The translations under genes and the position numbers were made by a program. This document shows positions 1,478-58,392 of a stretch of 64,000 nucleotides of DNA, one piece after another. The notes under the pieces were generated by a model. That model saw nothing but the letters and a program-made list of their open reading frames with translations, ran no database searches and was not told the DNA's origin. Source of the DNA: Ananas comosus (Eukaryota; Streptophyta; Magnoliopsida; Poales; Bromeliaceae); the NCBI RefSeq assembly GCF_001540865.1, contig NC_033641.1, positions 6,414,966-6,478,965 on the forward strand, written 5' to 3'. The first letter of the stretch is position 1. Every line of letters begins with the position of its first letter.

Positions 1478-4400
1478 TTGAGACAAATAAGTGATTTGCA
1501 CCCTAGCTTTATGGCTATGCAGTATCCTATTTTGTTCCCATTTGGTGAAGATGGATTTAGATTAGGTATAAAATATGTAGGAAGCAAGGTGAAAAATTCA
1601 AATTCTAGACAATGTGTTACAATGAGAGAATTTTATGCTTACAGGTTACAAAATAGAATAGAGGAAGGGAAGACATTGATAAGAGGAGGAAGATTATTTC
1701 AGCAATACATAGTTGATGCTTTTTCATGCATTGAAGAAGAAAGACTTGATTACATCAAAAGAAATCAGCCAAACCTGAGATCAGAAATTTATCAAGGTAT
1801 CAAAGATGCCGTTGTTAGAGGAGATTCTGATGGAAATGCCATAGGAAAAAAAATTATTTTGCCATCATCTTTTACTGGCAGTCCTCGATATATGATTCAA
1901 AATTATCAAGACGCCATTGCTATTTGTCGATGTCATGGGCAACCTGATCTGTTCATCACCTTTACATGTAATGCTCAATGGTTAGAAATAAGAAATGCTT
2001 TAAATTTCATTCCTGGACAAAAACCTGAAGACAGACCAGATTTCGTTAGCAGAATTTTCAAGATAAAGCTTCAGAAACTAATGGATGATATTAGAAAGCA
2101 TCAATTTTTTGGTCGAACTACTGCAGGTATACATATACTTTATCTATAATTGTCACTATACATTGTTTGCTATAGTAAATTCTCTAATTACTAAATACTT
2201 ATAGTTTTCTCTTGCACTTTTTCAGTGTTATACACCATAGAGTTTCAAAAACGTGGGTTGCCACACGCACATATTTTAGTCTGGCTGCAACAAGAGGACA
2301 AATATTTGACAACTGAAGCTATAGATTCAATTATTTCTGCCGAAATACCAGATAGAGATAGTGACCCCCTTGGTTATGAAAGTGTTGCGAAGTTTATGAT
2401 TCATGGTCCATGTGGAACACTTAATTTTGATTCACCGTGTATGAAGAAAGGTCATTGTTCAAAACACTTTCCAAAAGAATATCGGCAGAAGACAATCATA
2501 AATGAGAATGGTTTTGCTATCTATAAAAGAAAGGATGATCAACGATATGTCAAAAAAAGTGGAAATAATTTAGACAATAGATTTGTTGTTCCTTACAATC
2601 GAGATTTAATTGTAAAATATCAAGCTCACATTAACGTTGAATGGTGTAACAAATCAAGAATGATCAAATATTTGTTCAAGTATGTTAGCAAAGGACCAGA
2701 TAGAACACGAGCTGTGATAGAAGATAATGTCACAATAAATGAAAAAGGTGATCGACAATATGAAGAAATCGATGAAGTAAAGAAATATTTGGATTGTAGA
2801 TACTTATCAGCATATGAGGCTATGTGGAGGTTATTTGAATTCGACATTCATTTTAGAGAACCAAGTGTTGAACGGCTAACTATCCATTTGCCATTGATGC
2901 ATAAAGTCACATATCATGCAAGTCAATTCTTGGAATATGTTTTAAATAGACCAGATATTGGAAAAACAATGTTCACCGAATGGATGCATACTAATGAAAT
3001 ATTTGAAGATGCACGTGAGCTTACTTACGCAGAATTTCCCACAAAATGGGTTTGGAATGCGAAAGACAAAATTTGGACTAGAAGAAAACAAGGAAATCGT
3101 ATTGGAAGAATTGTCCATATTCATCCCACATCAGGAGAGTTATATTATCTAAGAATTCTTTTAAATGTCGTCAAAGGTGCAAGAAATTATGTCGACATTA
3201 GAACAATAGATGGTATAGAATACCCCACTTACCAATCAGCATGTCATGCATTAGGTTTGCTAGGTGATGATAGAGAGTGGGATCAAGCATTGAATGAAGC
3301 TGCAAATTGGGCATCATCTGATAAGTTAAGACAACTTTTTGTGACCTTATTAATGTTTTGTCAAGTTGCTGACCCAACGAAATTATTGGAAACCCATTGG
3401 ACAATGCTTATGGATGATATTGGATACAAATTACAAAAACTTCTTGACATACCAAATCTGAAAATTCCTGATGCAGAATTAAAAAATCATCTTTTACTAG
3501 AGTTGGAAATCTTGTTCAACAAAAACTGTAGCTCTCTTCATGAGTTCAATCTTCCATTGCCCAATAGAAATCTTTTTGAACAAACAAATAATAGGCTGAT
3601 AAGAGAGGAGTTGAGTTACAATATTGAACAACTTCAGAATGAGCACGTTGAATTAGTAAAAGGTTTGAATGATGAGCAAGAGATCATTTATAATGCAGTT
3701 GTCCAATCTGTTTTTGGGAACAAAGGTGAATTCTTTTTTGTTTATGGGCACGGAGGAACTGGAAAGACTTATCTTTGGAAAACAATCATTTCAAGAGTTC
3801 GATCTGCAGGAAAAATAGTTCTAGCTGTTGCTTCATCTGGAATTGCTTCGCTTCTGCTACCTGGAGGTCGTACCGCACATTCGAGATTTAAAATACCAAT
3901 TCACATTGATGAGTATTCTATCTGTGAAATAAAAAAAGGGACTCAATTAGCAAAACTACTTGAACAAACAAATTTGATAGTCTGGGATGAAACTCCAATG
4001 AATCATAGAAACTGTTTTGAAGCTTTAGATAGGTCACTAACTGATATTTTGGATTCGAGAGATTCACATATAGAAACCAAATTATTTGGAGGAAAAACAG
4101 TACTTTTAGGAGGGGATTTCAGACAAATTCTTCCGGTCATAATAGGAGGAAGTAGACAAGATACAATTAATGCTTCACTTAGTAGATCATCTTTATGGGC
4201 AAGTTGCAAAATTTTTCGACTAAAGAAAAATATGAGGTTATTAAGCAATTTGATTGATAGTAATTTGAGAACTTCCATGAACACTTTTGCTGAATGGATT
4301 TTGAATATTGGGGATGGAAAAATAGCTGCCAGAAAATTTGAAGAAGAAGAAGATGAAGCAACTTGGATTAAAATTCCTGAAGACTTGCTTATCAAAAGTA

Positions 4401-5152
4401 CCGATGATCCAATTCATGACATTGCCTCAGTAATTTATAGTGGTATAGAAGAAAAGTATTATGACATTATGTATTTAACAGAACGGGCCATTGTCACTCC
4501 TACAAATGAAACAATTGATAAAGTGAATGCATATGTGTTGTCGTTGATTCCAAATGAAGAAAGAATATACTACAGCTCTGATTCAATTTGTAAAGCATCA
4601 ATTTGTGAAGAGGACCAAGATATACTTTATCCTATTGAATTCTTAAATTCTTTGAATTTTAATGGCCTTCCAAAGCATGAGTTACGACTAAAAGTAGGTG
4701 CACCGATAATGTTGTTACGGAATATCAATCAAAATTCAGGTCTGTGTAATGGTACTCGGCTAATAATAACTCAGACAGCTACAAGAGTAATTGAAGCAAA
4801 AATAATCACCGGTAATAATGTCGGCACCAAAGTCTATATCCCTCGCATTACAATGCAAGCAACTGAGCATAAGTGGCCTTTTATTTTCAAGAGAACTCAA
4901 TTTCCTGTTCGACTTTGCTATGCCATGACCATCAATAAAAGTCAAGGACAAGCATTGAAACACGTGGGATTGTATCTACCAAAACCAGTATTCTCACATG
5001 GACAACTATATGTTGCAGTTTCCCGTGTTACTTCATGTGAAGGTCTTAAGATTTTGATAGAAAATGAAAGCCCGGAAAAGGAAGGCTACACCAAAAATAT
5101 AGTCTATAAAGAAATTTTTGATGATTTGATTTCAAATAATACTTCAGGTTAA
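1478..5152 (+). CDS. Helitron replicase/helicase (HUH Rep plus PIF1-like helicase)
   Basis: Two exons, 1478-2126 and 2226-5152, separated by a 99-bp GT..AG intron. The split G|TG codon restores the frame into LYTIEFQKRGLPHAHILV. Exon 1 carries the Helitron-like N-terminal domain (FMAMQYPILFPFGEDG, DLFITFTCNAQW). The second exon has the HUH motif (HAH in GLPHAHILVWL) and the tyrosine motif KYLFKYVSKG with the two Tyr used in strand nicking. The helicase part has Walker A GHGGTGKTYLW, Walker B LIVWDETPM, GGDFRQILPV, and the C-terminal NKSQGQ and YVAVSRV motifs of PIF1-type superfamily 1B helicases. The protein nicks and unwinds element DNA for rolling-circle transposition in the nucleus. The frame from 1478 is open throughout, unlike the decayed upstream exons. 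Confidence 0.9.
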
Positions 5153-7017: not shown

Positions 7018-7985
7018 ATGAGGAGCACTTGAGGACTGTGCTACAACTTCTGCGACAGAAGAAGTTGTATGCTAAGTTGAAGAAGTGCGAGTTCTGATTG
7101 CGGGAGGTTGCTTTCTTGGGTCACATGATTTCTGCAGAGGGAGTAGCAGTGGACCCGAAGAAGATCGATGCCATTCGGGATTAGCCCAGACCAACGACGG
7201 TGACAGAGGTGAGGAGTTTCCTAGGACTTGCTGGTTATTACCGTCGGTTTGTGGAAGGCTTTGCGAAGCTTTCCACACCCCTCACTCGATTGACTCGAAA
7301 GGGGATTCGGTTCATCTGGAGTGAGGATTGTCAGAGGAGCTTTGATGAGTTGAGACAGAGGTTGAAGTCAGCTCCTATCCTTGCCCTTCTTGTGATGGGG
7401 GAAGGATTTGTGATCTACAGGGATGCATCGCACAGCGGGCTGGGATGTGTGCTGATGCAGCATGGTAGGATAATTGCTTATGCTTCACGGCAGTTAAAGG
7501 ATTATGAGAAGAATTACTCTACGCATGACTTGGAGCTTGCCGCGGTAGTCTTTGCTTTGAAGTTGTGGCGGCATTACTTGTACGGCGAGCACTGCGAGGT
7601 TTTCACCGATCATAAAAGTCTCAAGTATCTGTTCACCCAGAGGGAGCTGAACCTGAGGCAGCGCCGGTGGTTGGAATTATTGAAGGACTATGATGTTAGT
7701 ATTCAGTATCATCCCGGCAGGGCGAATGTGGTGGCAGATGCGTTGAGCAGGAAGGCAGTGCAGAGCCTGAGTTCGATGATCACACAGTAGAGGCCGCTAC
7801 TCAAGGAGCTGTAGCGACTAGGGCTCGAGATAGTGTCCCCTGGGTCTACTGTGAGACTGATGTCTTTAGTCTTGCAGCCCACTCTGTTGGATAGGATCCG
7901 AGAGAAACAGAGTGGAGGTCCACATTTGTTGAGGATTCGAGAGCAGTTAGACAGGGACAGGCTGAGGGCTTTGTTGTAGACAGTT
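7018..7985 (+). pseudogene. Gypsy A pol fragment: reverse transcriptase end, RNase H, linker
   Basis: The translation begins at the HEEHLRTVLQLLRQKKLYAK segment after the RT palm, then FLGHMISAEGVAVDPKKID, with stops at the CEF* and IRD* positions. From 7200 a clean frame reads [17 protein letters not shown] and the RNase H core [17 protein letters not shown], then [20 protein letters not shown] and [15 protein letters not shown]. After 7790 only a degenerate linker remains (LQPTLLDRIREKQSGG). The frame then hits the inverted LTR ends and assembly gap at 7987. RNase H removes RNA from the RNA:DNA hybrid. The fragment cannot make a working pol. Confidence 0.85.
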
Positions 7986-7986
7986 T

Positions 7987-8428
7987 GTCACGCCCCGGGG
8001 CCGATTTTAAAAGCCTTTTTAAAATAGAGTTGCGGAAAGCGTGCCATTTTTTTTTTTTTTTCAACCTGGCCCACGCGACGTACAGANNNNNNNNNNNNNN
8101 NNNNNNNNNNNNNNNNNNNNNNNNNNNNNNNNNNNNNNNNNNNNNNNNNNNNNNNNNNNNNNNNNNNNNNNNNNNNNNNNNNNNNNTGTGAATGGTGAAT
8201 GTATGCATGTATAGCTATCTGTATATTCATTTAGTTGTGGTTGTATACTGTTTGTACTTTTGTACTTGTGCGATGCCGTGCAAATACAGGAGAGACTCTG
8301 TCCGTGTGAACAGTGGATTCCCTGTATTTGTGGCGGATCTGACATACTCTGGGGTCAGGTGTTTCAAAAAAAAATTTTAGTCGTTTCCGCTGTTTTTCCA
8401 AACTAAAAAGGGACCCCGGGGCGTGACA
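7987..8428. other. Inverted pair of LTR ends flanking a 100-N assembly gap
   Basis: The segment starts TGTCACGCCCCGGGG and ends CCCCGGGGCGTGACA, a perfect 15-bp inverted repeat. Between them are exactly 100 N (8087-8186), the convention for a gap of unknown size. The right part (8187-8428) is a direct copy of the LTR tail seen at 17640-17915. The left part (7987-8086) is the reverse complement of a related tail, including its poly-A stretch. It sits inside the integrase gene of element A, whose zinc-binding and first catalytic parts are missing. One or more LTR elements, or a foldback pair, lie in the gap. No flanking target duplication is visible. Confidence 0.75.
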
Positions 8429-8430
8429 AT

Positions 8431-9301
8431 TGTATCGGACAGGGACCCGAGGTTTGTTTCGCATTTTTGGCGGAGTCTTCAAACAGCCTTAGGTACACAG
8501 CTGCATTTTAGCACGGCGTTTCACCCATAGATAGATGGTTAGTCAGAGAGGACCGTACAGACTCTAGAGGACATGCTGAGGGCATGCGTCCTGGACTTTG
8601 GAGGAGGGTGGTATCGACATTTGAGACTGGCTGAGTTTGCGTACAACAACAGCTATCAAACACGCATCCAGATGGCTTCGTTTGAGGCGTTGTATGGACG
8701 CAGATGTTGATCCCCTTTGTTTTGGAGTAATGTGGGTGAGAGGAAGACACTAGGGCCTGAGATCTTGCTAGAGGCTGAGGAAAAGGTGAGAGTTGTTCGA
8801 CGACACCTTTTGACAGCCCAGAGCCGCCAGAGAAGCTACGCCGATACCCGGAGATGAGACTTAGAGTTTCAGGTTGGAGATCATGTATTCCTCAAAGTCT
8901 CACCGTCCAGAGGGATTCGCCGATTTGGAGTACATGGAAAGCTCAGTCCACGTTTCGTTGGCCCTTTTGAGGTATTAGAGCGAGTTGGACCGGTTGCCTA
9001 CAGTATTGCTCTACCTCCACGGTTAGCAGACATTCACGATGTGTTCCATGTCTCGGCTTTGAGGAGATATGTTTTCGATCCTTCGCAAGTGATCGACTTC
9101 ACTCCATTAGAGATTGGCGAGGATCTGAGATACGAGGAGCGACCGTTGCGGATTCTTGCTTGGGAGACGAAAGAATTGCGCAATCGGGTCATCCCGTATG
9201 TAAAAGTGCAGTGGAGTAATCACGAGGAGCGGGAGGCGACTTGGGAGCTAAAGACGGTGATGAGGGAGTCCTATCCCTACTTGTTTGATGCTCAGGGTTG
9301 A
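8431..9301 (+). pseudogene. Gypsy A integrase C-terminal half and chromodomain
   Basis: Resumes at [18 protein letters not shown], around the second catalytic Asp of the integrase DDE core. It continues through [17 protein letters not shown] with the catalytic Glu region, the GPY/F-like module (GKLSPRFVGPFEVLERVG) and VFHVSALRRYVFDPS. It ends with a chromodomain-like tail (NRVIPYVKVQWSNHEERE, ATWELKTVMRES). Several in-frame stops (for example HP*ID and RC*SPL near 8529 and 8706) and the lost N-terminal half make it a pseudogene. Chromodomain integrases direct insertion to marked chromatin. The stop near 9301 is followed by the 3' end of the internal region. Confidence 0.85.
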
Positions 9302-9735: not shown

Positions 9736-12700
9736 TGTCGCGCCCCGAGCCCGCCTATTTGGTCGGTTTCGGGCACGCCAACAGGCCGCCGAACGAACAG
9801 GGTTTCCCCTGTACCGCGGACAGAGTCTCCCCTGTACATTGAAGGCATCGCAATCAATACAATATACGATGTTCCAACCAGAAACACATTTCAACCAAAG
9901 ATTGCATAAGGAAGTATCAAAAACATAATTCTACTTGCTATTACAAGCACTCATCTCACATATTACATTTTACATTACAAATTATATTCTTTTACATTCA
10001 ACTTCCAAATACAATCCAGTTATTACAAATTTACTACAAGTTTGATACATCTTGTTCTTTCATTTTTCTCTACCCCTAGGCTATGCCGACTTGGGGTACC
10101 ATTATCTCTGGTCTCTGGGCAAGGCGCTATCTACGGAGCTACGCCCTTTTCTTGTGCCGCCGCCCGCTCACGTGTGAACCTGTAACACCTCAAAACAATG
10201 TGGGGTGAGAACCAACTCTATGGTTCTCAGTGGGTACGGCCACCCAAGAGAAGAGCTCGACCATTAGGCCCAAAGGAGGCAAACAACATGTTAGTGCAAT
10301 AGATAGATATAAAATCATAAATCATGCAACTAACATTACTATGCTTTTGCCTCACAACATGCAATATGTAAATTATGCAACTCATATAAGTAGATTAATC
10401 GCTTCTACACTTTATTCTTATACATTCTTTACTCTTAGTCATTCTTTACTTTACTAGCTATTCTTTAACATTTGCCTTTCTTTATTCTTTATTACTTGCC
10501 AATCTTTAGCATTAGCCCTTCTTTATTCTTTATTCTTTATTCTAAGGGTACTCACACCTTAGCCATGTTATACACATTGCCATTCTATCCTAAGGTTACT
10601 TTATCTTAGTCCAACTATGCCACTCGACTCGGACTTGAGTTAATCATATGCGGATAATCCGCGCTCTGTCAGTCTCGAGGTGAAGGACTATCACATGCAC
10701 CTCAGCCATCAATCTACAAACTACATCGCTCAAAGGGTCGCCCAGAGCTGCGTATACCCGTGGTCAGGGATCCCCCGGTAGGAGAGGAACATGCCGCACA
10801 CACCAGCAACCGAGATCCCCGATAGGGAAAGGAACATGCCACATGCACCCTAGCGCTCAAGATTCTTGCTCAATTACAAGTCTCGAAGTTCTTCCGGTGG
10901 GAGAAGAACTTGCCACATGCACCCGCGGCCAAGAACTATCGAGCTCGTATGCTGCACTCGCAGCCGCTGCACTAGCAGCAGCGATTCCGGAATCCACTTT
11001 ACATCTCTCAAGGGTTGGTCTCACCCTATAGTATCGACCTACCTAGGTCCAAGCCTTTACTCAACCTAAGTTAATACGTTAGGTTCAACGTTATTATTTT
11101 CTTAGCCTAGGTTCATTAACACTAGGTCTAATATTCTTTATCACCTAGGTTCATTTGACTCTAGGTTCAATGTCATTATTTTATTGTTTTCCTAGTTGTC
11201 CACACCTAGGAATTATACTTGACATGCCACTCGTGAATAACATATGTTCAATGACACTAGGTTTAATGCCACTCATCATTCTAGTTATTTTTACTTAGGA
11301 TTCTTTACATACCACATTTATTGAGTTTCTTACTTTACTTAGAGTTCATTGACTCAAGTTCAACCTTCACGTTATTCTAACATATTCTCATAATATGAAT
11401 CATACATATATTCTTTAGCATCTCATGCACATACTTATGTTCTTCTCAAATGATCATTGATTTACACTTTAGCTTACAACTCATACATTCTTACTTAGCA
11501 CATATCTCATACATTCTTTATTAACATTTCAATTATTCATCCATTTCTAAAACATGCATCTAGCTCATGTTACTTGGCATTTAACTCATGCATTTATCTA
11601 GCATATGTCTTACTCATTTAGCATTTAGCTCTTGCATTCATTAGCATACTTCACATGCATTTACTTAGCATCTAGCTCATGCCATTATATGCATTTATTA
11701 GCATCATTATGGTGTATTCTTACTTAGCATTCTTATCATGCATCAATAGTGAAACACACTACACTTTGGCATGAAGGCGACCTAGTCGCTTCGGTAAGCA
11801 CAACCCACCTCTTAACGCGTTCCGATTGCTTGTAGTCACTTGCAATCGGCCTCCCGCGGCACCCGTGACCCGGTTTGGCCCGAGCTCTTGCGCGACCACC
11901 CGAACGGTCACCAATCCGCAATCTGTCTGCTCTGGAGTTTAATCCTCGATACCACGATGCTTCAGACCATTTTCATGAATTTTGGACGTCTATCCCACGT
12001 GCTGCGGCTATCTGTACCAAAACAGACCGTTTCGTCAATAACTTCGCGTACACTCATCGGATCATCGAACCGAGCATTCCATCGCGTTCGTCTGATCCCC
12101 AATTAGGTTTAAAAAGGGTCAATTGAGATCAAATCCAACTATTTACAAAAACTCCCTTTTTGGAGCCCTAGATGCTACTATAGCAAAATCCATCATTTAA
12201 CTTCATGAATCATGCATTAACCATCTATTTAGCATCCTAGGATTCCACTAAAATCATCTTTAGAGTATAAGAACTTAACCCTAAAGATCTACCATTAAAG
12301 CTCCAAGAAGCTTACCTCAATAAACTCTTCCCATGGTGAGGAAGAAATGAGAAGAAGAAGTTTCCTCTTCTTAGCTTCCTTCTCCTCCTTTCTCTCCTTC
12401 ACTTTCTTCTTCTCTTCTCCTTTTCCTTTTTATAGAGAGAGGGAAGGTTTGGGGGATGAAACGGTGAGGGAAAGAAAGAGAGAGATGTTCTAATCCCCTC
12501 TATACTCATAACTCATGCACAAAATGCCAATAAGCCCCTCAATAATGCTTCTCTTGCAACAGCCCGAACTGGGCATTTTTGGGCTTCGGGGACCGGTCTC
12601 CCCGACAAGGGACCGGTCCCAGAGAGCTTGCCCCGCGGGCAGCAAAGGCTCCCGCGCGATGCAACCGGTCTCTCCCACAGGGACCGGTCTCTCGGGGACC

Positions 12701-12992
12701 GATCTCTCCCCGCAGGGACAGATTCCCGAGAGCAGGTTTTTCGGGACTTAGCCATATTTTCCCCTTTCTCACTTTTCACGCGTACGGGGACAGGTCTCCC
12801 CGACCAGGGACCGGTCCCCGAGAGCTGAAATTTGCAGTTTGCAGAATTATGACTCTTTAGCTCTCGAAGATCCCTTTAAACGCACTTTTACTCACTTTAA
12901 CACCTTCGGACTTTCCGAAGGGTACCAACCTCGCACTTTGATCAATTTGACTAAAGTTCGATATTTATTTACCGAAGTTTTGGTATATTACA
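9736..12992 (-). repeat. Gypsy C 3' LTR (left copy)
   Basis: On the minus strand it starts TGTAATATACCAAAACTTCGG and ends GGGGCGCGACA. It is homologous over its full length to 27524-30806. The part from about 11100 to 12992 is nearly identical to its partner, while 9736-11100 differs by many indels that lie in the partner's error-rich stretch. It contains an ACCGGT-rich block (12590-12820) and a CT-rich block (12340-12480). Low-complexity AT-rich sequence with many GCAT/TTAGCAT-like words fills 11390-11740. ORFs inside it are chance. Confidence 0.85.
12590..12820. repeat. GGGACCGGTCCC palindrome cluster in the C 3' LTR
   Basis: Five ACCGGT cores within about 230 bp (near 12592, 12612, 12664, 12683, 12810), most in the context GGGACCGGTCYC. 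Variants GGGACCGATC and GGGACAGGTC also occur. The matching block in the other C LTR (30400-30630) has six cores, and the D LTR (57899-58195) has eight. GGGACCGGTCCC is a perfect 12-bp palindrome. The role is unknown; regulatory or structural roles are guesses. Confidence 0.8.
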
Positions 12993-13106
12993 TTCTCCAC
13001 CCCTTAAAAGAATTTCGTCCGCAAAATTCAAACTACGTCTCAATTCAGCTCCTCGAGCAATTGAGGGCACCAATGCACTTTTCCACTTCGGAAGGGTTTC
13101 ACACTC
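12993..13106 (-). promoter_or_regulatory. Polypurine tract and 3' internal end of gypsy C
   Basis: Read on the minus strand, GGACGAAATTCTTTTAAGGG leads into GTGGAGAA and then the LTR start TGTAATATACC, the standard plant gypsy polypurine-tract junction. The remaining roughly 90 bp is non-coding internal sequence, cut by the single N at 13107. Confidence 0.75.
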
Positions 13107-13107
13107 N
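13107..13107. other. Single-N assembly join
   Basis: The interior of element C breaks here. To the right begins the non-complemented reversed block, so this is a contig boundary rather than one ambiguous base. Confidence 0.7.
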
Positions 13108-14795
13108 CCACAAACCTCCCGCCGTGACATCCGTCCCTCGCCGCCTCCGCGCGCCTCCGTCTCTAGCGGGTTCGAGCCGAGCGAGCTCCCCTTCCACAAA
13201 CCTCCCGCCGTGTCGTACCTGCCGCCCCTTACCGCCGCTGCCGCGGCCTCCAGCTCCCCTTCCACCGCGCGGGCTGACACCCGCCGCCGCTACGCGCCTC
13301 CGCGACGCTCGAGTTCGAGCCGGGCGTGGCCCAGAACCGCCCGCGTCTCTCGTCTTCGCCGCCGGCCCCTGGAGCCCCCGCCGCCGCTGGCCGCTCTTGC
13401 TGTGGCCTCTACCTAGAGCCGGTTCCCTTCTACCAACGCATCCAAATCCACGGAAGGGCTCGAGCCGCCGACTCCTTCCACCTTCCTTTTCACCCCTTCC
13501 ACCACCTCTTCTACGACTCCTCCCAAAAGACCGCCGGCCTTGTCGGACGGCCGCCGGCCCCGTGCGCGTGCTCCACCCGTCCCCTCTCGATTCTGTCGTT
13601 CCTCCCGTTCCAATCGACCCCTACCTAATCCCAATCCCAAAGGAAACACTTTGGGATCGTGGATGTATATATGTATCCACATTTATCGTTCTTCCAGGAG
13701 GGTCTCAAAGGAAACACTCAGGGACGGTGCCGCACGCAAAGTGCGTATGCATGGAGGTACAAACTTAAGTGCGTTAAGCTATGTATTTTATAATCCAGTA
13801 GCGCTAAATTGGCAAAACGGTTAAACTGGAGAGTCGCTTCTAGAACACTAAGGGTTTCTAGGCAGGTAGCCTAAAGGCTAGCCTAGCGCGGTTGCGCAAG
13901 TCGTGCCGACTCCGTAGATTAGATCGTAGAAAGAACAGGCTAAACCAGAGGCTAAGCGCTGCCTTGGTTGTGAGAAACGAAGGTGGTTATTGATGTATAT
14001 AAATATATACATTTTGGTTAGTTTGGGGAAAAAGAGCTACTGGCACGTAGTCTTGAGTTAAGGCAGTCACGGTAACCCGGGTCTTGTCAGCTCAGCAAGC
14101 TTTGCTCGATAACCTAGCGATACTCGCCTCAGGCTATGCATGGCTTTCGGTTGAGATAAGGAATCAAAGAAGCTTTTTGGCCCAATGATAAGTGAAATTC
14201 ACTTTTGATTATTAGCGCATTGAAGAGGCAAGATTGAGTAAAAGAGGACTTTGAACTGCTCACGAATACATTAATTTAATGTGTATATTTGTAGCAGTTG
14301 TCTCTCAAATCAACGTGACATTTTTAGAGTCAGGAATGTAATAGGGGGGAAATTTTCTTCAAAGCAGGAGCTTTGAACTGGTACATGGGTCGCATTAGCT
14401 TAAGCCTATAATGAAGGTGGTAACACCATAGTGGGAACTCATAACCAGTTAATGTATAGGTACTTAAACCTGTCTAGTTAGAGGCTTATTCCCTTCTTAT
14501 CCTGATGCCAAGGTAAGCCTGTTCTACTCCCTTTTGAATGTCTAAGCTTTAGGTACCTGGTTGTTGAGTGACCCTAGCTGTGGTAAGATGTTGGACACCT
14601 GTTTTTGTCAGGGCGCTGGTTCTAATAGGCTAGGGTTTAACGGTTAAAACTCTATTAATTAGTTGTAAGTCTTTAAGATCCAGGTAAGATGGAACCAGGC
14701 GTATCGGCATTGGTTGAACTGATGCAGCGTTCAAGTGCATCTTTTCAGTGCTTTGTTAGTGAAATTAGACCTCAGATAAATGCATCTGACTTTGT
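13108..14795. other. Mirror block: literal reverse, not complement, of 19895-21598
   Basis: Written backwards without complementing, this block matches 21598 down to 19895. I compared it line by line. 13840-14795 matches exactly, base for base (position p pairs with 34690 minus p), including the polypurine tract, the LTR start and about 450 bp of internal region. 13108-13840 matches at roughly 95 percent with a few 2-3-base indels. The match ends at 14795/14796 and starts at the N at 13107. The next base, 14796, continues the LTR at the equivalent of 21600, so the block looks reversed in place. DNA synthesis cannot copy with parallel polarity; a data-processing error is the likely cause. ORFs here mean nothing. 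Confidence 0.95.
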
Positions 14796-16093
14796 CCGGC
14801 GACCTCCGGCGTGCATCCCCGGACGTCCCAGTAGCCGCCGCCCGCCGCTCTTCCACTCTACGGCCGTCCAGAGCTGGTGCGGGCCGAGGCCAAGCCACCT
14901 CGGCCACCGCACGATGCCGCCGCCCACGGAGGGGCGCATCATGATCCCCTCGGCCTCCAACGACGGATCGACGTCGCCCCGACCTCCTCCGACCACCGCC
15001 GCGCCGCCGAGAACCCATGAACCCGAGAGCAAGTCGAGGAATTGATCTCCTCCGCCGCGCCACTGGCCGCCTCCCGCCGCCGGCAAGCAGGTTCCCGGGA
15101 CCCCTTGGACCAGCCGCTCCCATCTCCGGCTGAAACGCTCGCCGTTCGGCCGCCGGCGGCCAACCCTAGCTCCCTGCTCTCCGGTAAGGCTGTTTTTGTG
15201 TTACAGCTTACTGTTTGAGGTTTCTGGTCGCCATTCCGGCAATCCAAAGGCACCCCGATGACAGTGGAAGTGAGCACGATCATCGTTACTCCGTGCCAAG
15301 CATCGTGCTCACCTCCGTCGGGGTCAACGGTTCCCCGGTTTGCGTGTTAGATGCGATTTAGGCTTTGTGCGCGCTGTTTCACCGATGTTTGCGTCGCTCG
15401 TGCGCCCTCCACAGTGTTCGGCAGTGCTCCGAAAGGTGAGCACGGCCTCCGGCACGCTGAGACCTGTCAGCAGGTATCTCAGCTTCACTGATTCATTTCT
15501 GGTTTGTGCAGACGGACCATAAAAGCGCCGAAATCGTATGAAATAATGCGATTTCGGGTAATTGGGAAGGCTTTTATGTATTTTGGGTTGTTGCGGCTGC
15601 TGTTGGCAGCATGGGTGAGTAGTGGGTAACCTTTGGACTGATTGTCCAAAGCCCCAAGCCCTTACGGAGACCGTAAAGTGATTTTAGCAAGTCATGTTAG
15701 TGGGTTTCGGTTCGGAATTCTTCCGACGGTACTTGGTGATTATTTGCGTCGTCACTGAGCCTTGTTGGCTGGTCACCCGCGTCGTTTCGAGGGTTCGGAA
15801 ACGACGGGTGAGCGACGGTGGAGTTCCGGTGCGGTTTTCGGGACTTCCGGCTTGTTCGGTAATCAGTTTTAGGAAACCAGTTCTCGTGGTTCTGATGAGT
15901 GGGGATTGTGTGTTAGCAAGTCATGTTAGTGGGTTAGATTCTAACTCGTTGGACCTTTCGTAGGTTCGATTGTTCCGTCTTCACAGTCGAGAGATCTTCA
16001 TCAGACACGTACAGGTGGGTACTTCGATCCGACGTCGGTACAGTGGTGTACGCTCGGTGATGGTTTCTTACCTTTGTTCTCTCGTTATTTTCT

Positions 16094-16130
<37 letters not shown>

Positions 16131-17915
16131 TGATATATAGTGTTGAGCCTAGCACCATGTTGTTTCAGTTATGCTCTACTCGGTTATTTTCGTTATATCT
16201 AGTATCATGAGTAGGAGTAGAGTAGTTATTCCATGTTTCTTTGTTACTCAATTTAGCTGTTCTGCATATCCGGTATCATGTATAGAGTAGAGCATCTTCG
16301 TGACTTTCAATGTTTGATGACTGTTGAGGTCGGTATACCCTGAGGGGTGAGATTGTCGGTTAATGGACGACGGATGATTATAGTTTTCACAGATCCGTCA
16401 TTTTGACCCTTTGTGACCTAGTCTGTCAGTTCTGGATTCTTGTCGTTTAATGACCCACGAGGTCGGTGTACCCTGAGGGGTAGGATTGTCAGCTAGTGGC
16501 TAACGGCAGTTCCAGATTATAGTGATACATTCCTGTGACTTATTGGTTGATTCTTGCATATATACTTTAGTTGATCCATCGAGCAGCTTTTCCATACTTT
16601 TGAGAGGATGTTGAGTCGATTTGTTGTGCATATATCCTAGTTGACCTGAGTGGTCAGTCCTTGTGTTTCATTGAGTAGTACTAGCAAATGTTTGAGAGGA
16701 TGTCGATGTTGTCCCATCCTAGTTGACCTAAGTGGTCGGTTCTTGTGCTTCCTTACAGTTGGATGACCTTTTGGCGGTCAGTGGTGATTGTCGGCTGATT
16801 GCCGACGGTTGGCTATTGATCATATCCGTATTGATCGCCACAGCTCGAGTGCATTTCACGTACACCAGCGGGTTGATCCCCCGCAGGAGGGTGTTCTTTT
16901 CTGGAAAAGTGGTCGTACATCCGACCCGTGAGCCCAGCGGTGTTCTCTTTGTGCTAGCTAGGGTTACATGCCAGGTGTGAGCAGGTAGTGGCTTTTGCCT
17001 GAGGTCCTTAGACCGATAGGGCGGTTTAGATTGGGTACTTTTGGACTTCTCGTCCGGTTGACGCATATAGCTATAGTAGCGGTTGTTGCATATATACTTC
17101 TAGTTCTTTCTTTACAGTTGTCTTGCTACTATAGTTTTGATATCCTTGTATGCTTGCAGTTGTACATTACAGTAGCGGTAGTTGTGCTTTCATATATATA
17201 TCTCATTTGTTCATTATCGTTGCTACTGTATTTTACTTACCCATACTGTTGTTTATCTCTTCCTTATCCGGTGAGTACTCCTCGCCTTCTTCGGCTTGCG
17301 GTACCCACTGGGAGGGGAGACATGTTTACATGTTCTCACCTCCCCTACTATTTTTCAAGTATCGCGGGCGGTGAGGTTGAGACGAGACGTGAGACATGTG
17401 GATAGCTGTCGTTAGAGCCTCCGACCCGGTTTGTACTATTTAGTTATTACCCTATTATTTCTGGTGATATATAGCATAGTCGGTCTATATGGTTCAGTAT
17501 TTCATTATGTTAAAATATTCAAGGATTTCTGAATTTTCGTAAATAGAAGATTTTCTACCCCTCGTGGTAGCGTTTTTAAAAGATAAAAGTATCCGTGTAG
17601 GGAACAGTTTTCAAAAGATTTTCTGTGGAATTATGTTTAAACATTGAATGTAAATCTGTGATGTGAATGGTGAATGTATGAATGTATAGTTATCTTTATA
17701 TTCATTTAGTTGTGGTTGTATCCTGTTTGTACTTTTGTACTTGTGCGACGCCGTGCAAATATAGGGGAGACTCTGTCCGTGTGAACAGTGGATTTTCTGT
17801 ATTTGTGGCGGATCTGGAATTCCCTGGGGTTAGGTTTTCAAAAAAAAAAAAAAAAAAAAAAATTTAGACGCTTTCGCAATGCTTTGAAATCAAAAAGGAA
17901 CTCCGGGGCGTGACA
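14796..17915 (+). repeat. Element B left LTR, 3' two-thirds
   Basis: Direct homolog of 21600-24838. The first part (14796-15180) is very GC- and CpG-rich. It then holds unique sequence, an (AT)n run at 16099-16128, and the tail from about 17640 that is shared with 8187-8428. It ends with GGGGCGTGACA. Differences from the 3' LTR are few up to 16080; the many indels after that belong to the other copy. ORFs on both strands of the GC-rich part are composition artefacts. Confidence 0.85.
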
Positions 17916-17923
17916 GATTAAAG

Positions 17924-17936
17924 TGGTATCAGAGCC
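17924..17936 (+). promoter_or_regulatory. Primer-binding site of element B (initiator tRNA-Met)
   Basis: TGGTATCAGAGCC, 8 bp after the LTR end, is complementary to the 3' end of plant initiator tRNA-Met. It fixes the LTR edge at 17915 and the plus orientation. Confidence 0.9.
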
Positions 17937-20333
17937 AAGTTACAACCACAACACCATTCACAGGTTGTTTTGAAAAATAAATGAAACTTAACCATTGGTT
18001 AGGTTGACCCATAGGAAGACCTACGGTGTATAGGCATGTGAGTGCGGGGTTTGGGCTTGTGTCCCGGTGTGCATTCGAGTTTGGTAAACTCGAAGCGCAT
18101 GGTGTTTCTGTATGTGTTACGGTTCGCACAAACTGGTGTCTAAGTCGAGAGTAGTGGCAGTGTACTTCTTCGGACATCGAGTGGTAGGGCGACGTCCCCC
18201 ATGTGTTGCCACTCCTGTCAAGTGGGGCCTTGAAGGGCCAAGTGAGATTTTCGGGCCTAGGCGAGTGTCATAATTGCGGACGCCCAGGCCACTCTCTCTA
18301 CTTAGGACACGAGAGCTGTTGCGAGTGTCCCTACAGAGACGGCACTGTGATCAGTTACGATCGTGACTTTAGTCGGGCTACTAGGGCGTAGCCCAGGGTT
18401 TGGATAGCGGTCGTTTCGGCGACTGCATTGTTAGTGTTGCTTCCGCAGATCTTTGGGTGGGGTTGTGATGCCTACCTATCCTCCTTGATTGCTGATTGGA
18501 ATCAGCGGTTCGGGTCTTTTGACCTTTACCTCGTTCATTCTTCCTACTAGAGTCGGAATGACACAATTTTGGTGTCAAGTTTTCATTGATGCATACATCG
18601 TATGCGATTATTCTAACACCTAAATTGGTGTGTTGTGGGTTAATTTGTGGTTGGTGATAGGTTTCGTCTTGATTCGAGAGACTCCAGGTTATTGTCGGAA
18701 TTCTCGGAGCTTTGATTATAGCTCGGTTGAGGTGCGAAAATCGGTTAGAGAAACCGTTTTCTAAAGCCTCAATTAGTACGGTGCGCGGCTTAGTGTCGCT
18801 AGCAGCTTTCGGATGTTGAAAGTTATAAGACTCCCTGTGAGTCGGTTCACAGTCGTTCTGATTTCGAATGTCGACTTATAAAGTCGATGTAATGGTTGTG
18901 AACTCTTGGTTCAGTGAAGAGGTATCAGGTGGCTTGATACTTCGATGTGTCGCGCTTCCAACTTGTTGTTGGTAGTGAATCTTGGATATTTCGCTCTCTT
19001 TTGATAAGAACATTGGCTGCAGACAATATACTGTCGAAAGTTAAAATGAAATACTCATTTTCCGTGTGGAACTTTTGGGTTGGGTCAGTATTCGCTCTAG
19101 CTTGTCTTAGGAGAAAGCTTAAGTGATGATCATCTTTGATCATGTAGCGAGCCTTGGATTATTCCCTGGCAGGTTTTGTGCAGTTGACTTATCGTCACTG
19201 CTGATGGTTCTGACGTTGGTTCGAGTCTGGGTGCTTGTTAGCTCTTTAGTTGTACCTGTTACAACTAAAAGGTTTGTTTGGTTAGTAGTCTCGATCTGTT
19301 TGCCAGGAGGTTCTGAAGCACAGTGTTGAGTGACTTGAGCCTGGTTGTTGGCTTTGATTGTCACCATATGTGATAGCGTATAAGGTTTGCGGCTTGGCTT
19401 ATTGTGCAAACCTAGAAATGGTATGCTTGTCCAGTCAAATTGGTGACAGGTGCGCCTGGGTCTCAATGAGACATGCATTTGGTGTTGCTCAGAACATCAA
19501 TCGCTAGGGTCCCTGGTAGGACAGCAGCGACAGGGTCTCGTGGAGACAAATATTGAGCATCGTCGACGGTTCAACCTGTGTATCAAGTGATGGACTTGCA
19601 AAGAGCATTTGGTGGTCTGTTGGTACCGCATTAAGTTTGAGGAGACAAAATTGTCTAGCTCAATTGGTATTGTCAGTTGGACCTTTTGGCCAGGTGGAAA
19701 GTAAGGTCTTGGAACTAGGACTATAGATTGTCGCAGGTGACTTTCCGTTGATGAGATTTTGGCAATTTGTGTGGTTATCTGGTGGGAGATTGTGGTCTCC
19801 ATAGTGAGTGTTATTGTCTTGGTTGTCGGAACAACGTTTCGTATTTGCTCATGGTGAGCAGGTTTACGTTGTTGAATAGTCGGAGTTTTTTTTTTGTTTC
19901 AGTCTACGTAAATAGACTCCAGATTAAAGTGATTGTTTCGTGACTTTTCTACGTGAACTTGCGACGTAGTCAAGTTGGTTACGGCTATGCGGACCAAGGT
20001 AGAATGGACCTAGAATTTCTGAATGTTGATTAATTATCTCAAAATTGGCAATTTGGGATCGGATAATCTTGGTCGCGGGACTGTTTTTGTCCACAGGTTG
20101 TAGAATGGTGTCGATCCCAGTGAGTTGTTGGTCCATGGATTTCGAATCTGTAAGTTTTCCCTCATCTTGTCCGAATGGAACCGTAGTCCTATTCTTCCCT
20201 TATTCGGAGATTGATCTGTCCAAATTCATGGATATGTAATTGACCAATACTCAAGGGTGATACCACAATGGTGGAAGTAATATCCGAATTCGATTACGCT
20301 GGGTACATGGTCAAGTTTCGAGGACGAAACTTC
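17937..20333 (+). other. Non-coding internal region of element B
   Basis: About 2.4 kb between the primer site and polypurine tract without any long ORF, and without RT, protease, RNase H or integrase motifs. The only protein-like relic is the knuckle fragment at 18203-18391. The base composition is T- and G-rich on the plus strand. The last roughly 450 bp (from 19895) is the part that reappears reversed at 14340-14795. Confidence 0.7.
18203..18391 (+). pseudogene. Relic of a gag zinc knuckle in element B
   Basis: The translation includes CHNCGRPGHS followed shortly by a Cys pair (GHESCCECP), resembling the C-x2-C-x4-H part of a retroviral CCHC knuckle, as in the intact knuckle of element D ([14 protein letters not shown]). 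The last Cys spacing is not canonical, and the frame is open for only 62 codons. It probably marks descent of B from a gag-coding gypsy element. The reading rests on one short motif. Confidence 0.45.
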
Positions 20334-20350
20334 TTTTAAAGGGGGGATAA
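20314..20350 (+). promoter_or_regulatory. Polypurine tract of element B
   Basis: GTTTCGAGGACGAAAC followed by TTCTTTTAAAGGGGGGATAA immediately precedes the LTR start TGTAAGGACTG at 20351, the canonical plant gypsy junction. Confidence 0.85.
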
Positions 20351-22897
20351 TGTAAGGACTGAGATTTTTACAGTGCAACTAAACTCTCTGTTGACGATGT
20401 TTATATGTGTAATTTAATTACATAAGCACTCGTCAAGTTTCAGGAGAAAATGAGTTAGAACGGAGAAGTTACGCGATTATTAGTTTTCACTTAAAGTGAA
20501 TAGTAACCCAATTTTCCGGAGAAACTAAGGAATAGAGTTGGCTTTCGGTGCGTATCGGACTCCGCTCACAGCGATCCAATAGCTCGTTTCGAACGACTCG
20601 ACTGTTCTGGGCCCAATGGCACTGACGGAATTGAGTTCTGATGCACGGTCATCGAGAAAAAGGGGTTTGATTGGTTTTACATATATAAATATATGTAGTT
20701 ATTGGTGGAAGCAAAGAGTGTTGGTTCCGTCGCGAATCGGAGACCAAATCGGACAAGAAAGATGCTAGATTCGATGCCTCAGCCGTGCTGAACGCGTTGG
20801 CGCGATCCGATCGGAAATCCGATGGACGGATCTTTGGGAATCACAAGATCTTCGCTGAGAGGTCTTGGCAAAACGGTTAAATCGCGATGACCTAATATTA
20901 TGTATTGAATTGCGTGAATTCGAACATAGAGGTACGTATGCGTGAAACGCACGCGCTGGCAAGGACTCGGCTAAAAATATAAAGCTCTGGGAGGACCTTC
21001 TTGCTATTTACACCTATGTATATATGTAGGTGCTAGGGTTTCACAAAGGAAACCCTAACCCTAATCCATCCCCAGCTAACCTTGCCCTCCTTGCCGTCTC
21101 AACTCTCCCCTGCCCACCTCGTGCGCGTGCCCCGGCCGCCGGCAGGTTGTTCCGGCCGCCGGAAAACCCTCCTCAGCATCTCCTCCACCACCTTCCCCAC
21201 TTTTCTTTCCACCCTCCTCAGCCGCCGAGCTCGGGAAGGCACCTAAACCTATGCAACCATCTTCCCTTGGCCGAGATCCATCTCCGGTGTCGTTCCCGCC
21301 GGTCGCCGCCGCCCCCGAGGTCGCCGGCCGCCGCTTCTGCTTTCTGCGCCCGCCCAGACCCGGTGTGGGCCGAGCTTGAGCCCGCAACGCCTCCGCGCGT
21401 CGCCGCCGCCCACCGTCGGGCACGCCACCTTCCCCTCGACCTCCGGCACCGTCGCCGCCATTCCCCGCCGTCCATGCTGGCTGTGGTGCCACCTGGACTC
21501 GCTGCAGCCGCCCAGACTCGGAGCGAGCAGAGCTTGGGCGATCTCTGCCTCCGCGCGCCTCCGCCGCTCCCTGCCGACAGTGCCGCCCTCCAGACACCTC
21601 CGGCGACCTCCGGCGTGCATCCCCGGACGTCCCCGTAGCCGCCGGCCGCCGCTCTTCCACTCTGCTGCCGCCCAGAGCTGGTGCGGGCCGAGGCCGAGCC
21701 ACCTCAGCCACCGCACGACGCCGCCGCCCATGGAGGGGCGCATCATGATCCCCTCGGCCTCCGACGACGGATCGACGTCGCCCCGACCTCCTCCGGTCGC
21801 CGCCGCGCCGCCGGGAACCCATGAACCCGAGAGCAAGTCGAGGAATTGATCTGCTCCGCCGCGCTACTGGCCGCCTCCCGCCGCCGGCCAGCAGGTTCCC
21901 CGGACCCCTTGGACCAACCGCTCCCATCTCCGGCCGAAACGCTCGCCGTCCGGCCGCCGGCGGCCAACCTTAGCTCCCTGCACTCCCGTAAGGCTGTTTT
22001 GTGTTACAGCTTACTGTTTGAGGTTTCTGGTCGCCTTTCCAGCAATCCGAAGGCACCCCGATGACAGTGGAAGTGAGCACGATCCACGTTACTCCGTGCC
22101 AAGCATCGTGCTCACCTCCGTCGGGGTCAACGGTTCCCCGGTTTGCGTGTTAGATGCGATTTAGGCGTTGTGCGCGCTGTTTCACCGATGTTTGCGTCGC
22201 TCGTGCGCCCTCCACAGTGGTCGGCTGTGCTCCGAAAGGTGAGCACGGCCTCCCGCACGCTGAGACCTGTCAGCAGGTGTCTCAGCTTCGCTGATTCATT
22301 TCTGGTTTGTGCAGACGGACCATAAAAGCGCCGAAATCGCATGAAATAATGCGATTTCGGGTAATTGGGAGGGCTTTTATGTATTTTGGGTTGTTTCGGC
22401 AGCTGTTGGCAGCATGGGTGAGTAGTGGGTAACCTTTGGACTGATTGTCCAAGGCCCCAAGCCCTTACGGAGACCGTAAAATGATTTCTGATGCGTTTCT
22501 CGGCGAAATCCGCCGACGGAACGCGAGTTTCGGTTCGGAATTCTTCCGACGGTACTTGGTGATTATTTGCGTCATCACTGAGCCTTGTTGGCTGGTCACC
22601 CGCGTCGTTTCGAGGGTTCGAAAACGACGGGTGAGCGACAGTGGAGTTCCGGTGCGGTTTTCGGGACTTCCGGCTTGTTCGGTAATCAGTTTTGAGAAAC
22701 CGATTCTCGTGGTTCTGGTGAGTGGGGATTGTGTGTTAGCAAGTCATGTTAGTGGGTTAGATTCTAACCCGTTGGACCTTTCGTAGGTTCGATTGTTCCG
22801 TCTTCACAGTCGAGAGATCTTCGTCAGACACATACAGGTGGGTACTTCGATCCGACGTCGGTACAGTGGTGCACGCTCGGTGATGGTTTCTTACCTT

Positions 22898-22931
<34 letters not shown>

Positions 22932-24838
22932 TGATAATAGTGTTGAGGGCCTACACTAATGTTGTTTCAGTTAATGCATGCGTACTCGGTTATTTCGTGT
23001 GTATATCTCGAGTATCGGATGGAGTAGGAGTAGAGTATTTATTGCCATATTCTCTTGTTATATGTCTATTGCTAAGTGGCTTTCGTCTAATGACCGGTCT
23101 ATCAGTGTTATAGGTAAGCAACTTCGTGACTTTCAATTGTTTGATGACCGTTGAGGCGGTATAAGGTTGCCATCTGAGGGTGAATTGTCGGTTAAAATGC
23201 CGATAGCAGAGTGATTATATTCCAGATGGTTTCAACAGATCCGTCATTTCGACCCTGTTGGGACCTGATCTTCCAAGTTGCTGGATTCTTCTCGGTATTA
23301 ATGTTACCGCACGAGGTCGGTACGCCTAGAAGGGATAGATTTGGTCAGCTAGTTGGCATGACGCAAGTTCCAAAGAATTATAGTGAAGTAGCATCTGCCT
23401 GTTACTTATTGTTGATTCTGTGTCATATATCACTATTATGTTGATCCATCGAGCAGGTTTTTCCCATGACTTTGAGAGTATTTAGCTCGATTCGTTTGTG
23501 CATATATCCTAGTTGACGCTGATGGGTCAGTCCTTTGGTTCATTGATAGTAGTACTTCGCATATGTTCTGGAGGATTCATTCGTTTCTCCATCTTAAGGT
23601 TACCGTGAGTTGGTCGGTTTCTTGTGCTTCCTTACAGTTGGATGACCTTTTGCGGTGCAACGCTCCCAGGCGTGATTGTCCGCTGATTGCGCGACAGTTG
23701 CTATTGATCATATCCGGCATTGATCGCCAAGTCAAGTGCATTTCACGATACAACGAGCGGGTTGATCCCCCGCAGTATGGGTGTTCTTTTCGCAGGAAAA
23801 GTGGTCGTGCATTGCCGACCCGTAGCCCAGCATCGTTCTCGTTTTGTCTTAGTTACATGCCAGTGTAGCTAGGTATTGGCTTTTGCTTGAGAGTCGCTTA
23901 GACCGACACGCCGCGTTTTAGATTGGGCGTACTTTTGACTATCTCGTCCGGTTGACGGCATATAGCTATAGTAGCGTTGTTGGCATAATATACTTCTAGT
24001 TCTTTCTTTAGGCAGCAGTGTCTTGCTACTGATAGTTTTGATATCCTTATATAGCAACTTGCAGTTGTAATCATTAGACAGTAGAGTTAGTTGTGCTTTC
24101 ATATATATATCTCTCGTCATTATGTTGCTACATAATATTTAGCTTAGCGCTCATACTGTTGTTTATCTCTTCCGTGATCCGTGAGTACTCCTCGCCTTCT
24201 TCGCTGGGCAGTACCCACTGGTGAGGAGCACATGTTTACATGTTCTTCCACCTCCTCCCACGTATTTTCAGCTATCGCGGGCGTGAGGTTGAGACGAGAC
24301 GTGAGACACGTGGTTATGCTCGTTAGAGCTCCGACGCGCGGTTTGTAACTGATTATTATTACCGGTCTATTATTCTGGTGATATATAGCTTATCGGTTCT
24401 ATATGGTTTCTGAGTATTTCATATAGTGTAATAAATATTCAAGATTTCTCGATTTTCGTGAAATAGAAGGTTTTCTACCCCTCGTGGTATCTGTTTTTAA
24501 AAGATAAAAAGTTTCCGTGTAATGAAGCAGTTTTCAAAGATTTTTCTGTGGAATTATGGTTTAACATTGAATGTAAATCGTGATTGAATGGTGAATTAGA
24601 AATGTATAGTTTATCTTATATCATGTTAGTTTGTGTTGTATCCTGTTTGTACTTTTGTAACTTGTGCGACGCGTTGCAAACATACAAGGGAGACCTCTGT
24701 CCGTGTGAACAGTGATTTTCTTGTATTTGTGGCGGATCTGTCATTCCCCTTGGTTAGGTTTTCAAAAAAAGAAAAATAATAATAATAATTAGTACACTTT
24801 CGCAATGCTTTGAAATCAAAAAGAACTCCGGGCTGACA
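20351..24838 (+). repeat. Element B 3' LTR (about 4.5 kb)
   Basis: Starts TGTAAGGACTG after the polypurine tract and ends with a damaged tail (CTCCGGGCTGACA against CTCCGGGGCGTGACA in the left copy). It contains a GC-rich block (21060-21970) with overlapping ORFs on both strands, of which the longest (283 codons, minus) is low-complexity Arg/Gly and not a gene. From the (AT)n at about 22900 onward it carries dense one-base insertions and deletions relative to 16100-17915. The length is unusually large for an LTR but not unknown in plant gypsy elements. Confidence 0.85.
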
Positions 24839-30500: not shown

Positions 30501-30806
30501 TCTCTCGGGGACCGGTCTCTCCCCGCAGGGACCGGTTCCCGAGAGCAGGTTTTCTGGGACTTAGCCAAATTTTCTCCTTTCTCACTTTTCACGCGTACGG
30601 GGACCTGTCTCCCCGACCAGGGACCGGTCCCAGAGAGCTGAAAATTTGCAGTTTGCAGAATTTTGACTCTTTAGCTCTCGAAGATCCCTTTAAACGCACT
30701 TTTACTCACTTTAACACCTTTGGACTTTCCGAAGGGTACCAACCTCGCACTTTGGTCAATTTGACTAAACTTTGATATTTATTTACCGAAGTTTTGGTAT
30801 ATTACA
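27524..30806 (-). repeat. Gypsy C 5' LTR (right copy)
   Basis: Homolog of 9736-12992, with the same minus-strand start TGTAATATACC (30806 leftwards) and end (27524). The segment 27524 to about 29130 has many one-base indels against its partner; from about 29130 to 30806 the two are nearly identical. The ACCGGT cluster is at 30400-30630 with six cores. GGTGT follows at 30807-30811. Confidence 0.85.
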
Positions 30807-38432: not shown

Positions 38433-38630
38433 AAAACATCAATCAATCAATTAGAAAGAAACCCAACTTGCGCTTCCATTTTAATCGGTAGTGACCAACC
38501 ATGAATATATAAATATAATATATATATATATATACCATAGGATTACTCCTACAACCGACCAATGTGTATGATTGTGTTGGCCCACTAATCAAGCAAAGCG
38601 TGTTGCATACTTGCATGCCCACCCCCATGT

Positions 38631-39300: not shown

Positions 39301-39363
39301 TCTTCAAAACCAAATACCACACTCCAACAATGTTCTATGTTACAAACCAACTCTTCTTTCTAT

Positions 39364-45348: not shown

Positions 45349-45411
<63 letters not shown>

Positions 45412-46271: not shown

Positions 46272-46308
<37 letters not shown>

Positions 46309-46783: not shown

Positions 46784-46821
<38 letters not shown>

Positions 46822-47948: not shown

Positions 47949-47949
47949 N

Positions 47950-47984
<35 letters not shown>

Positions 47985-58361: not shown

Positions 58362-58392
58362 TCCTCCCCTCCTTAAAAAGAGTTTCGTCCTC
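58362..58392 (-). promoter_or_regulatory. Polypurine tract of gypsy D
   Basis: On the minus strand GAGGACGAAACTCTTTTTAA leads into GGAGGGGAGGA and then the LTR start TGTAAGG. Confidence 0.85.

What the first reader, a model, noticed from the sequence alone, without database searches (positions are those of the whole stretch)
13108..14795. A 1.7-kb block is the plain reverse, without complement, of sequence 5-8 kb away
Writing 19895-21598 backwards reproduces 14795-13108. I checked it line by line: 13840-14795 is an exact match (p pairs with 34690 - p), and 13108-13840 is about 95 percent with small indels. Reverse-complement alignment fails. The partner has a normal polypurine tract and LTR start; here these read backwards (GGGGGGAAATTTTCTTC). 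Polymerases and recombination preserve strand polarity, so no ordinary inversion gives this. The block begins exactly at the N at 13107 and rejoins direct LTR sequence at 14796 as if flipped in place. The likely source is a gap-filling or contig-extension step that reversed without complementing. If reads confirmed it, it would have no known mechanism.
Basis: seen in the sequence. Interest (0 to 1): 0.95.

Follow-up and report, generated by a model that had tools for sequence, protein, structure and literature searches.

The report
Assembly error: a backwards-written LTR piece
A 1.7-kb stretch of a plant retrotransposon really is written backwards without being complemented in this sequence, but its position against a gap mark and its exact join show that it is almost certainly a software mistake made while a contig end was extended, not real DNA.

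Summary
Read backwards without complementing, 13108-14795 aligns end to end with 19895-21598 (1636 of 1709 columns). Direct, complement and reverse-complement readings score like shuffles. It is the only kilobase-scale plain reverse found in the window and starts right after a single N.

Best explanation: a leftward contig-end extension pasted in growth order. Turned back, its inner end meets the direct LTR with no base lost or gained (21598|21599). Near that seam it diverges from the partner much as the adjoining LTR does. Its outer 615 nt are identical to the partner and carry the internal 3' end and polypurine tract, which cannot lie upstream of the 5' LTR that follows. So the extension drifted into the 3' LTR copy, stopped at a T10 run, and its buffer was not reversed.

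Three of the other six single Ns lie between near-duplicate sequences, as unmerged contig ends would. The species is probably pineapple. The program was not identified, and neither reads nor the whole genome could be examined. Not a real feature; low biological interest.

The parts
13107..13107 (.). single N, taken as a contig boundary or unclosed join; the block starts at the next base
   Evidence: one of seven single Ns in the window
13108..14794 (.). block written in plain reverse (not complemented); 14795 (T) fits both block and direct LTR
13108..14339 (.). plain-reversed first part of the LTR (partner 20351-21598)
   Evidence: alignment; LTR start read
14340..14794 (.). plain-reversed 3' end of the element's internal region with polypurine tract (motif starts at 14368 in the plain-reversed string); the outer 615 nt, 14181-14795, are identical to the partner
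14796..17915 (+). rest of a 5' LTR in normal orientation, ending ...CGTGACA
   Evidence: direct match to 21599-24838; sequence
17924..17935 (+). primer binding site motif TGGTATCAGAGC (recalled as tRNA-Met-type), which identifies 14796-17915 as a 5' LTR
19895..21598 (+). partner: internal 3' end, polypurine tract (20322-20346) and first part of the 3' LTR, normal orientation
19886..19895 (+). T10 run in the partner at which the reversed block stops
20351..24838 (+). 3' LTR (TG...CA) of the same element; from about 22930 rich in small indels against the 5' copy
9736..12992 (-). left contig: LTR, taken as belonging to another, minus-strand element (second copy at 27524-30806), with a polypurine-like motif just beyond it and then sequence cut by the N
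   Evidence: orientation read by eye from the motif

Best explanation
It is a software artefact. The contig that begins at about 14796 starts inside a 5' LTR. A contig-extension or gap-filling step walked leftwards from it for about 1,687 nt. It went first through this LTR copy and then, because 5' and 3' LTRs are alike, drifted into the 3' LTR copy. It crossed that copy's start into the polypurine tract and internal region and stopped at a T10 run. The walked bases were stored in the order in which they were added and put in front of the contig without being reversed (equivalently, a minus-strand walk was complemented but not reversed). The result did not meet the left contig, so a single N was left between them. 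Shown: the plain reverse, the seam, the divergence pattern, the LTR grammar and the N. Inferred: the walk, the buffer error and the tool.
For: (1) Only the plain reverse aligns, full length, E=0. (2) The block starts at the first base after a single N. (3) Turned back, its inner end is flush with the direct LTR: partner 21598|21599 corresponds to block end|14795 with no base lost or gained. (4) Substitutions per 100 nt next to the seam are 3-11% inside the block (partner 21095-21594) and 5-7% in the first 500 nt of direct LTR beyond it, but 0 in the outer 615 nt. (5) The outer part carries the polypurine tract and internal 3' end, while 14796-17915 is followed by a primer binding site motif and so is a 5' LTR; that order does not occur in one inserted element and points to drift into the 3' copy. 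(6) The polypurine/LTR-start motif reads in normal sense only in the plain-reversed block, which also matches another element of the window at 58354-58398 on the strand of its pol genes, 89% over 46 columns. (7) The outer end stops at a T10 run. (8) Three of the other six single Ns (37498, 44579, 47949) have nearly the same 1-1.7 kb sequence on both sides (93.8-96.0%), as unmerged contig ends would. (9) No known polymerase, recombinase or repair route copies a strand in parallel (established knowledge, recalled).
Against: No raw reads, no other assembly and no other copy of this locus could be examined; the window's own genome could not be searched. The divergence inside the block is uneven: the bins at 20595, 20795 and 20995 also have no substitution, so the drop to zero is not smooth. 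The other three single Ns (5944, 46034, 57587) show no duplication beyond short repeats. None of the 13 other flanks of single Ns shows a kilobase flip, so the error is not shown to be systematic; most have no partner in the window that could reveal one. A k-mer test for reversed text was inconclusive. I found no publication describing this error in a genome assembly. The one gap-closer algorithm of which I read the closing rules leaves 100 Ns or a computed number of Ns and describes no reversal (PMC6324547 section 8).
Confidence: 0.96

Rival explanations
1. The flip arose after assembly: a string-handling error while contigs were merged, oriented, converted or cut into this record reversed 1.7 kb that had been assembled in normal orientation.
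For: Any tool that handles strands can reverse without complementing; plain-reversed text is an ordinary internal object of sequence software, for example Bowtie's 'mirror' index (passage seen, PMC2690996) and SPUMONI 2's null reads (passage seen, PMC10197461).
Against: The flip begins exactly after the N and ends where the turned-back sequence continues seamlessly. The reversed part includes the stretch that drifts into the wrong LTR copy. A later, unrelated error would have no reason to pick these bounds.
Confidence: 0.03
2. Ordinary biology: an inversion, an inverted repeat, a mirror repeat or another LTR copy that the first reader misread.
For: The window holds several LTR copies and inverted arrangements.
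Against: Direct, reverse-complement and complement readings score 24-35 against 3052 for the plain reverse. Natural mirror repeats are short and simple (recalled); the other plain-reverse matches listed here are at most 100 columns and those printed are simple repeats or AT-rich runs.
Confidence: 0.002
3. Real DNA: an unknown process copied or joined 1.7 kb with reversed strand polarity (parallel-strand synthesis or 3'-3'/5'-5' rejoining).
For: The sequence as given shows it; no read data exclude it.
Against: No known enzyme does this (recalled). The block abuts an N, has a seamless in-place boundary, carries the wrong-copy drift typical of repeat mis-extension, and stops at a homopolymer.
Confidence: 0.002

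Closest known systems
Repeat-induced mis-extension in gap filling (short- or long-read gap closers)
   Same: Sequence put in at a gap mark, drawn partly from the wrong copy of an LTR, ending at low-complexity sequence, with the join left open by an N.
   Different: Such fills are normally written as direct sequence or reverse complement (recalled); this one is a plain reverse.
Haplotypic or unmerged contig overlaps separated by a minimal gap
   Same: Three other single Ns of the window look like this (37498, 44579, 47949), so the same kind of contig boundary is probably present.
   Different: There both copies are in direct orientation, and the differences look allelic in the two pairs listed; here one side is plain-reversed.
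Plain-reversed text as an internal object of sequence software (mirror index of Bowtie; null reads of SPUMONI 2)
   Same: Character order reversed without complement.
   Different: It is not meant to reach an output sequence; no link of this assembly to those programs is shown.
Mirror repeats (H-DNA-forming)
   Same: A sequence and its plain reverse on one strand.
   Different: Natural mirror repeats are short and low-complexity (recalled); this is 1.7 kb of complex LTR sequence.

Membership tests
Assembly artefact from contig extension / gap filling | Anomalous sequence is bounded by a gap mark or contig end | tested here: met
   Starts at 13108, next to the single N at 13107
Assembly artefact from contig extension / gap filling | Sequence continues the contig when the error is undone on paper | tested here: met
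   Block inner end corresponds to partner 21598, direct LTR to 21599, no base lost or gained
Assembly artefact from contig extension / gap filling | Material drawn from the wrong repeat copy | tested here: met
   615 nt identical to the 3' LTR side, internal 3' end upstream of a 5' LTR
Assembly artefact from contig extension / gap filling | Spanning raw reads do not support the sequence | not testable with these tools
   No reads held
Assembly artefact from contig extension / gap filling | Recurrence at other gap marks of the assembly | tested here: inconclusive
   1 of 14 flanks of the seven single Ns shows a kilobase plain reverse; the whole genome could not be searched
LTR retrotransposon (the substrate) | LTR pair with TG...CA ends, primer binding site and polypurine tract | tested here: met
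   LTR parts 14796-17915 and 20351-24838, primer site motif 17924, polypurine tract 20322. The start of the 5' LTR is not seen in normal orientation; target-site duplication and lineage not tested, and no Pfam search was made of the 2.4-kb internal region
Genomic inversion or inverted repeat | Reverse complement aligns | tested here: not met
   Score 24 against 3052 for the plain reverse

The most novel reading that the evidence does not exclude
The block is real DNA: a 1.7-kb LTR segment was copied or rejoined with reversed strand polarity, which would need parallel-strand synthesis or an unknown joining chemistry.
Probability: 0.002. Interest if true: 0.98.

Novelty: not a real feature. Interest (0 to 1): 0.1.

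Why it matters
As biology it does not matter. As a data-quality case it is useful. A plain reverse is not seen by aligners that compare only direct and reverse-complement strands, so such a block looks like unique sequence, can open false reading frames (a 338-codon frame, 12752-13768, runs across the N into the block), and hides a wrong fill. Comparing assemblies with their own plain reverse, above all next to Ns, is a cheap test that would show how common the error is.

Tried and rejected
K-mer test: a leave-out k-mer score for text that looks reversed was inconclusive. With k = 4 the lowest of 253 windows (13001) overlaps the block, but 15501 and 31251 are almost as low; with k = 2 and 3 the lowest is 15501, in direct LTR.

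Other flips: a plain-reversed BLAST of the whole window and of the 14 flanks of the seven single Ns found no second kilobase block. Of 42 plain-reversed open frames of at least 110 aa I printed ten outside the block and its partner and put six of those to Pfam, leaving out four by eye; 0 of 6 had a domain at E<=0.01. This says little, since 36 of 42 were not scanned and most flanks have no partner.

Public record: a frame encoded by the block as written (13109-13765, +) had no relative at E<=0.001 among 5488 candidates, so no published protein showed that the block as written is in an annotated assembly.

Raw-read explanation of the single-N duplications: the listed differences of the 37498 and 47949 pairs are more often substitutions than indels, many of them transitions, with several indels in simple repeats; this looks allelic rather than like raw-read error, so I dropped the idea that they are noisy fills. 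True tandem duplication is not excluded. The 44579 pair was not listed this way.

Which software: not determined. Three pineapple assembly papers that I asked for by DOI are not held. For MD2 v2 I read section 2.3, which names LR_GapCloser (PMC8774480), and the gap-closure section of its paper (PMC6324547). Its N rule does not explain these single Ns, and nothing shows that the window is from that assembly. Passages of two further gap-closer papers gave no lead (PMC6733440; PMC7476103), nor did the listings (20 of 454 papers; 20 of 73; 20 of 34).

Full report
OBSERVATION. The finding is right about what is in the sequence. The plain reverse of 13108-14795, without complementing, aligns over its full length to 19895-21598: 1636 identical of 1709 columns, 47 mismatches and 26 gap columns, BLAST 95.7%, 2728 bits, E=0. 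As controls, the same local alignment scores 34 for the block as written, 24 for its reverse complement, 35 for its complement and at most 28 for 20 shuffles, against 3052 for the plain reverse. The other plain-reverse or plain-complement matches listed for the whole window at E<=1e-6 are at most 100 columns long; the 15 stretches of them that I printed are simple repeats or AT-rich runs.

The register p + q = 34690 holds for 13840-14795 with 949 of 956 matches, not all of them. The exact run is the outer 615 nt, 14181-14795 against 19895-20509. Beyond partner base 20850 there are 687 matches, 40 mismatches and 26 gap columns. Base 14795 fits both the block and the direct sequence that follows it.

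ANATOMY. The partner lies in an LTR retrotransposon on the + strand. A polypurine tract at 20322-20346 is followed by the LTR start TGTAAGG at 20351, and the 3' LTR runs to 24838. The direct sequence from 14796 to 17915 matches 21599-24838, ends in CGTGACA and is followed eight bases later by TGGTATCAGAGC at 17924, which I recall as the primer binding site for a tRNA-Met. So 14796-17915 is the rest of a 5' LTR, and 20351-24838 is taken as the 3' LTR of the same element. A pattern for the polypurine motif, run on all four readings of the window, matched the + strand at 20322 and the plain-reversed string at 14368 and nothing else. The pattern was modelled on this element and misses looser relatives: one lies on the minus strand at 58354-58398 and matches the block only in plain reverse, 89% over 46 columns. 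The partner's reading is therefore the native one.

THE BLOCK IS FLIPPED IN PLACE. Turned back, its inner end corresponds to partner base 21598 and the direct sequence begins at 21599, so nothing is lost or gained. In the five bins next to the seam (21095-21594) the block differs from the partner by 3-11 substitutions per 100 nt; the direct LTR in its first 500 nt beyond the seam differs by 5-7. The outermost 615 nt are identical, of which about 456 nt are internal region and about 159 nt LTR. The fall is uneven: three 100-nt bins further in (20595, 20795, 20995) also show no substitution. From 20510 on there are 47 mismatches in 1068 aligned bases, 4.4%. At that even rate 615 identical bases would have a chance of about 1e-12, and at the 2% of the nearest 350 nt about 4e-6 (my arithmetic; the real rate is not even, so these are rough, and gene conversion between LTRs could equalise the LTR part). 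The turned-back order would be internal 3' end, polypurine tract, LTR, primer binding site. One inserted element does not have that order. It is what results when an extension that starts inside a 5' LTR wanders into reads or contigs of the 3' LTR. Recombined LTR arrays could have the order too, but would not explain the flip. The outer end stops at a run of ten Ts in the partner.

SURROUNDINGS. The block begins at the base after a single N. The window has seven single Ns and one run of 100. At three of the other six single Ns the two sides carry nearly the same sequence in direct orientation: 36533-37497 and 37499-38450 (96.0%), 43070-44424 and 44580-45970 (93.8%; the first copy stops 154 nt short of the N), 46274-47948 and 47950-49622 (96.0%); the remaining three (5944, 46034, 57587) show nothing of the kind beyond short repeats. 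In the first and third pair, the two that I listed, substitutions outnumber indels, many are transitions, and several indels lie in simple repeats, which looks allelic. At these places single Ns probably separate overlapping contig ends that were not merged. The left contig at 13106 appears to belong to another element, on the minus strand, with LTR copies 9736-12992 and 27524-30806 and a polypurine-like motif just beyond 12992. If so, the natural sequence left of the 5' LTR should be that host element. It is missing, which would explain why the join stayed open.

MECHANISM. The simplest account is a leftward extension of the contig that begins at about 14796. A program adding bases one by one to the left, or walking on the opposite strand, must turn its buffer before output. 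Here the buffer appears in growth order: the base nearest the contig is at 13108 and the last one added is at 14794. The flip, the seam, the identity to the 3' side and the N are shown; the walk and the buffer error are inferred. Plain-reversed text is a normal internal object of sequence software. Bowtie keeps a 'mirror' index of the genome 'reversed (not reverse complemented)' (passage seen, PMC2690996), and SPUMONI 2 uses reversed, non-complemented reads as a null that should not match the reference (passage seen, PMC10197461). I do not claim that either was used here.

SOURCE. The Helitron frame at 2195-5152 is identical in 502 of 506 residues (its residues 5-510 of 985) to an annotated pineapple protein (LOC109726322, Ananas comosus). 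Of the three relatives found for the lipid-transfer-like frame at 39178-39723, two are from pineapple and the third shows no species in the part printed. So the source is probably Ananas. Which assembly it is was not found. A comparison table lists contig N50s from 0.02 to 2.97 Mb for four pineapple assemblies (passage seen, PMC8824783). The search of the window's own genome did not complete.

LITERATURE. Searches for plain-reversed assembly errors brought up nothing on the subject. They returned 0, 1, 1, 2, 6 and 59 papers (20 of the 59 listed, none about DNA assembly by title). I opened passages of five: PMC8920891 (reversed motif models as a control), PMC10282599 (oligonucleotide controls), PMC6366073 (unrelated uses of the words), PMC2690996 and PMC10197461. 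The others I know from the listing only. This covers open-licence papers only.

VERDICT. It is not a real biological feature. A real plain-reversed block cannot be formally excluded without reads, but I put it at about 0.2%.

Noticed in passing
36533-38450, 43070-45970, 46274-49622: Direct duplications on both sides of single Ns (93.8-96.0%): probably unmerged, allelic contig ends; sequence counts here may be doubled falsely.
   Followed up: partly
22930-24838: 3' LTR part with many small indels against 16128-17916, starting just after an (AT)n run at 22897-22929; it may be a noisy patch, though in a three-way comparison of its last 280 nt the third copy (8187-8433) had as many private indel columns (14 against 12).
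   Followed up: partly
7986-8428: By eye, two LTR 3' ends face each other in opposite orientation across the 100-N gap, next to an RNase H domain frame at 7185-7790; perhaps a further misjoin.
   Followed up: no
1451-5152: Helitron Rep/helicase in two long open frames; half of the second is nearly identical to a pineapple protein.
   Followed up: partly
58433-62500 (minus): Ty3-type element with protease, reverse transcriptase, integrase zinc-binding and a chromodomain at the Pfam cut-off; a primer binding site motif at 63527 on the minus strand.
   Followed up: no
9736-30806: A minus-strand LTR element (LTR copies 9736-12992 and 27524-30806) appears to host the plus-strand element of the finding.
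   Followed up: partly
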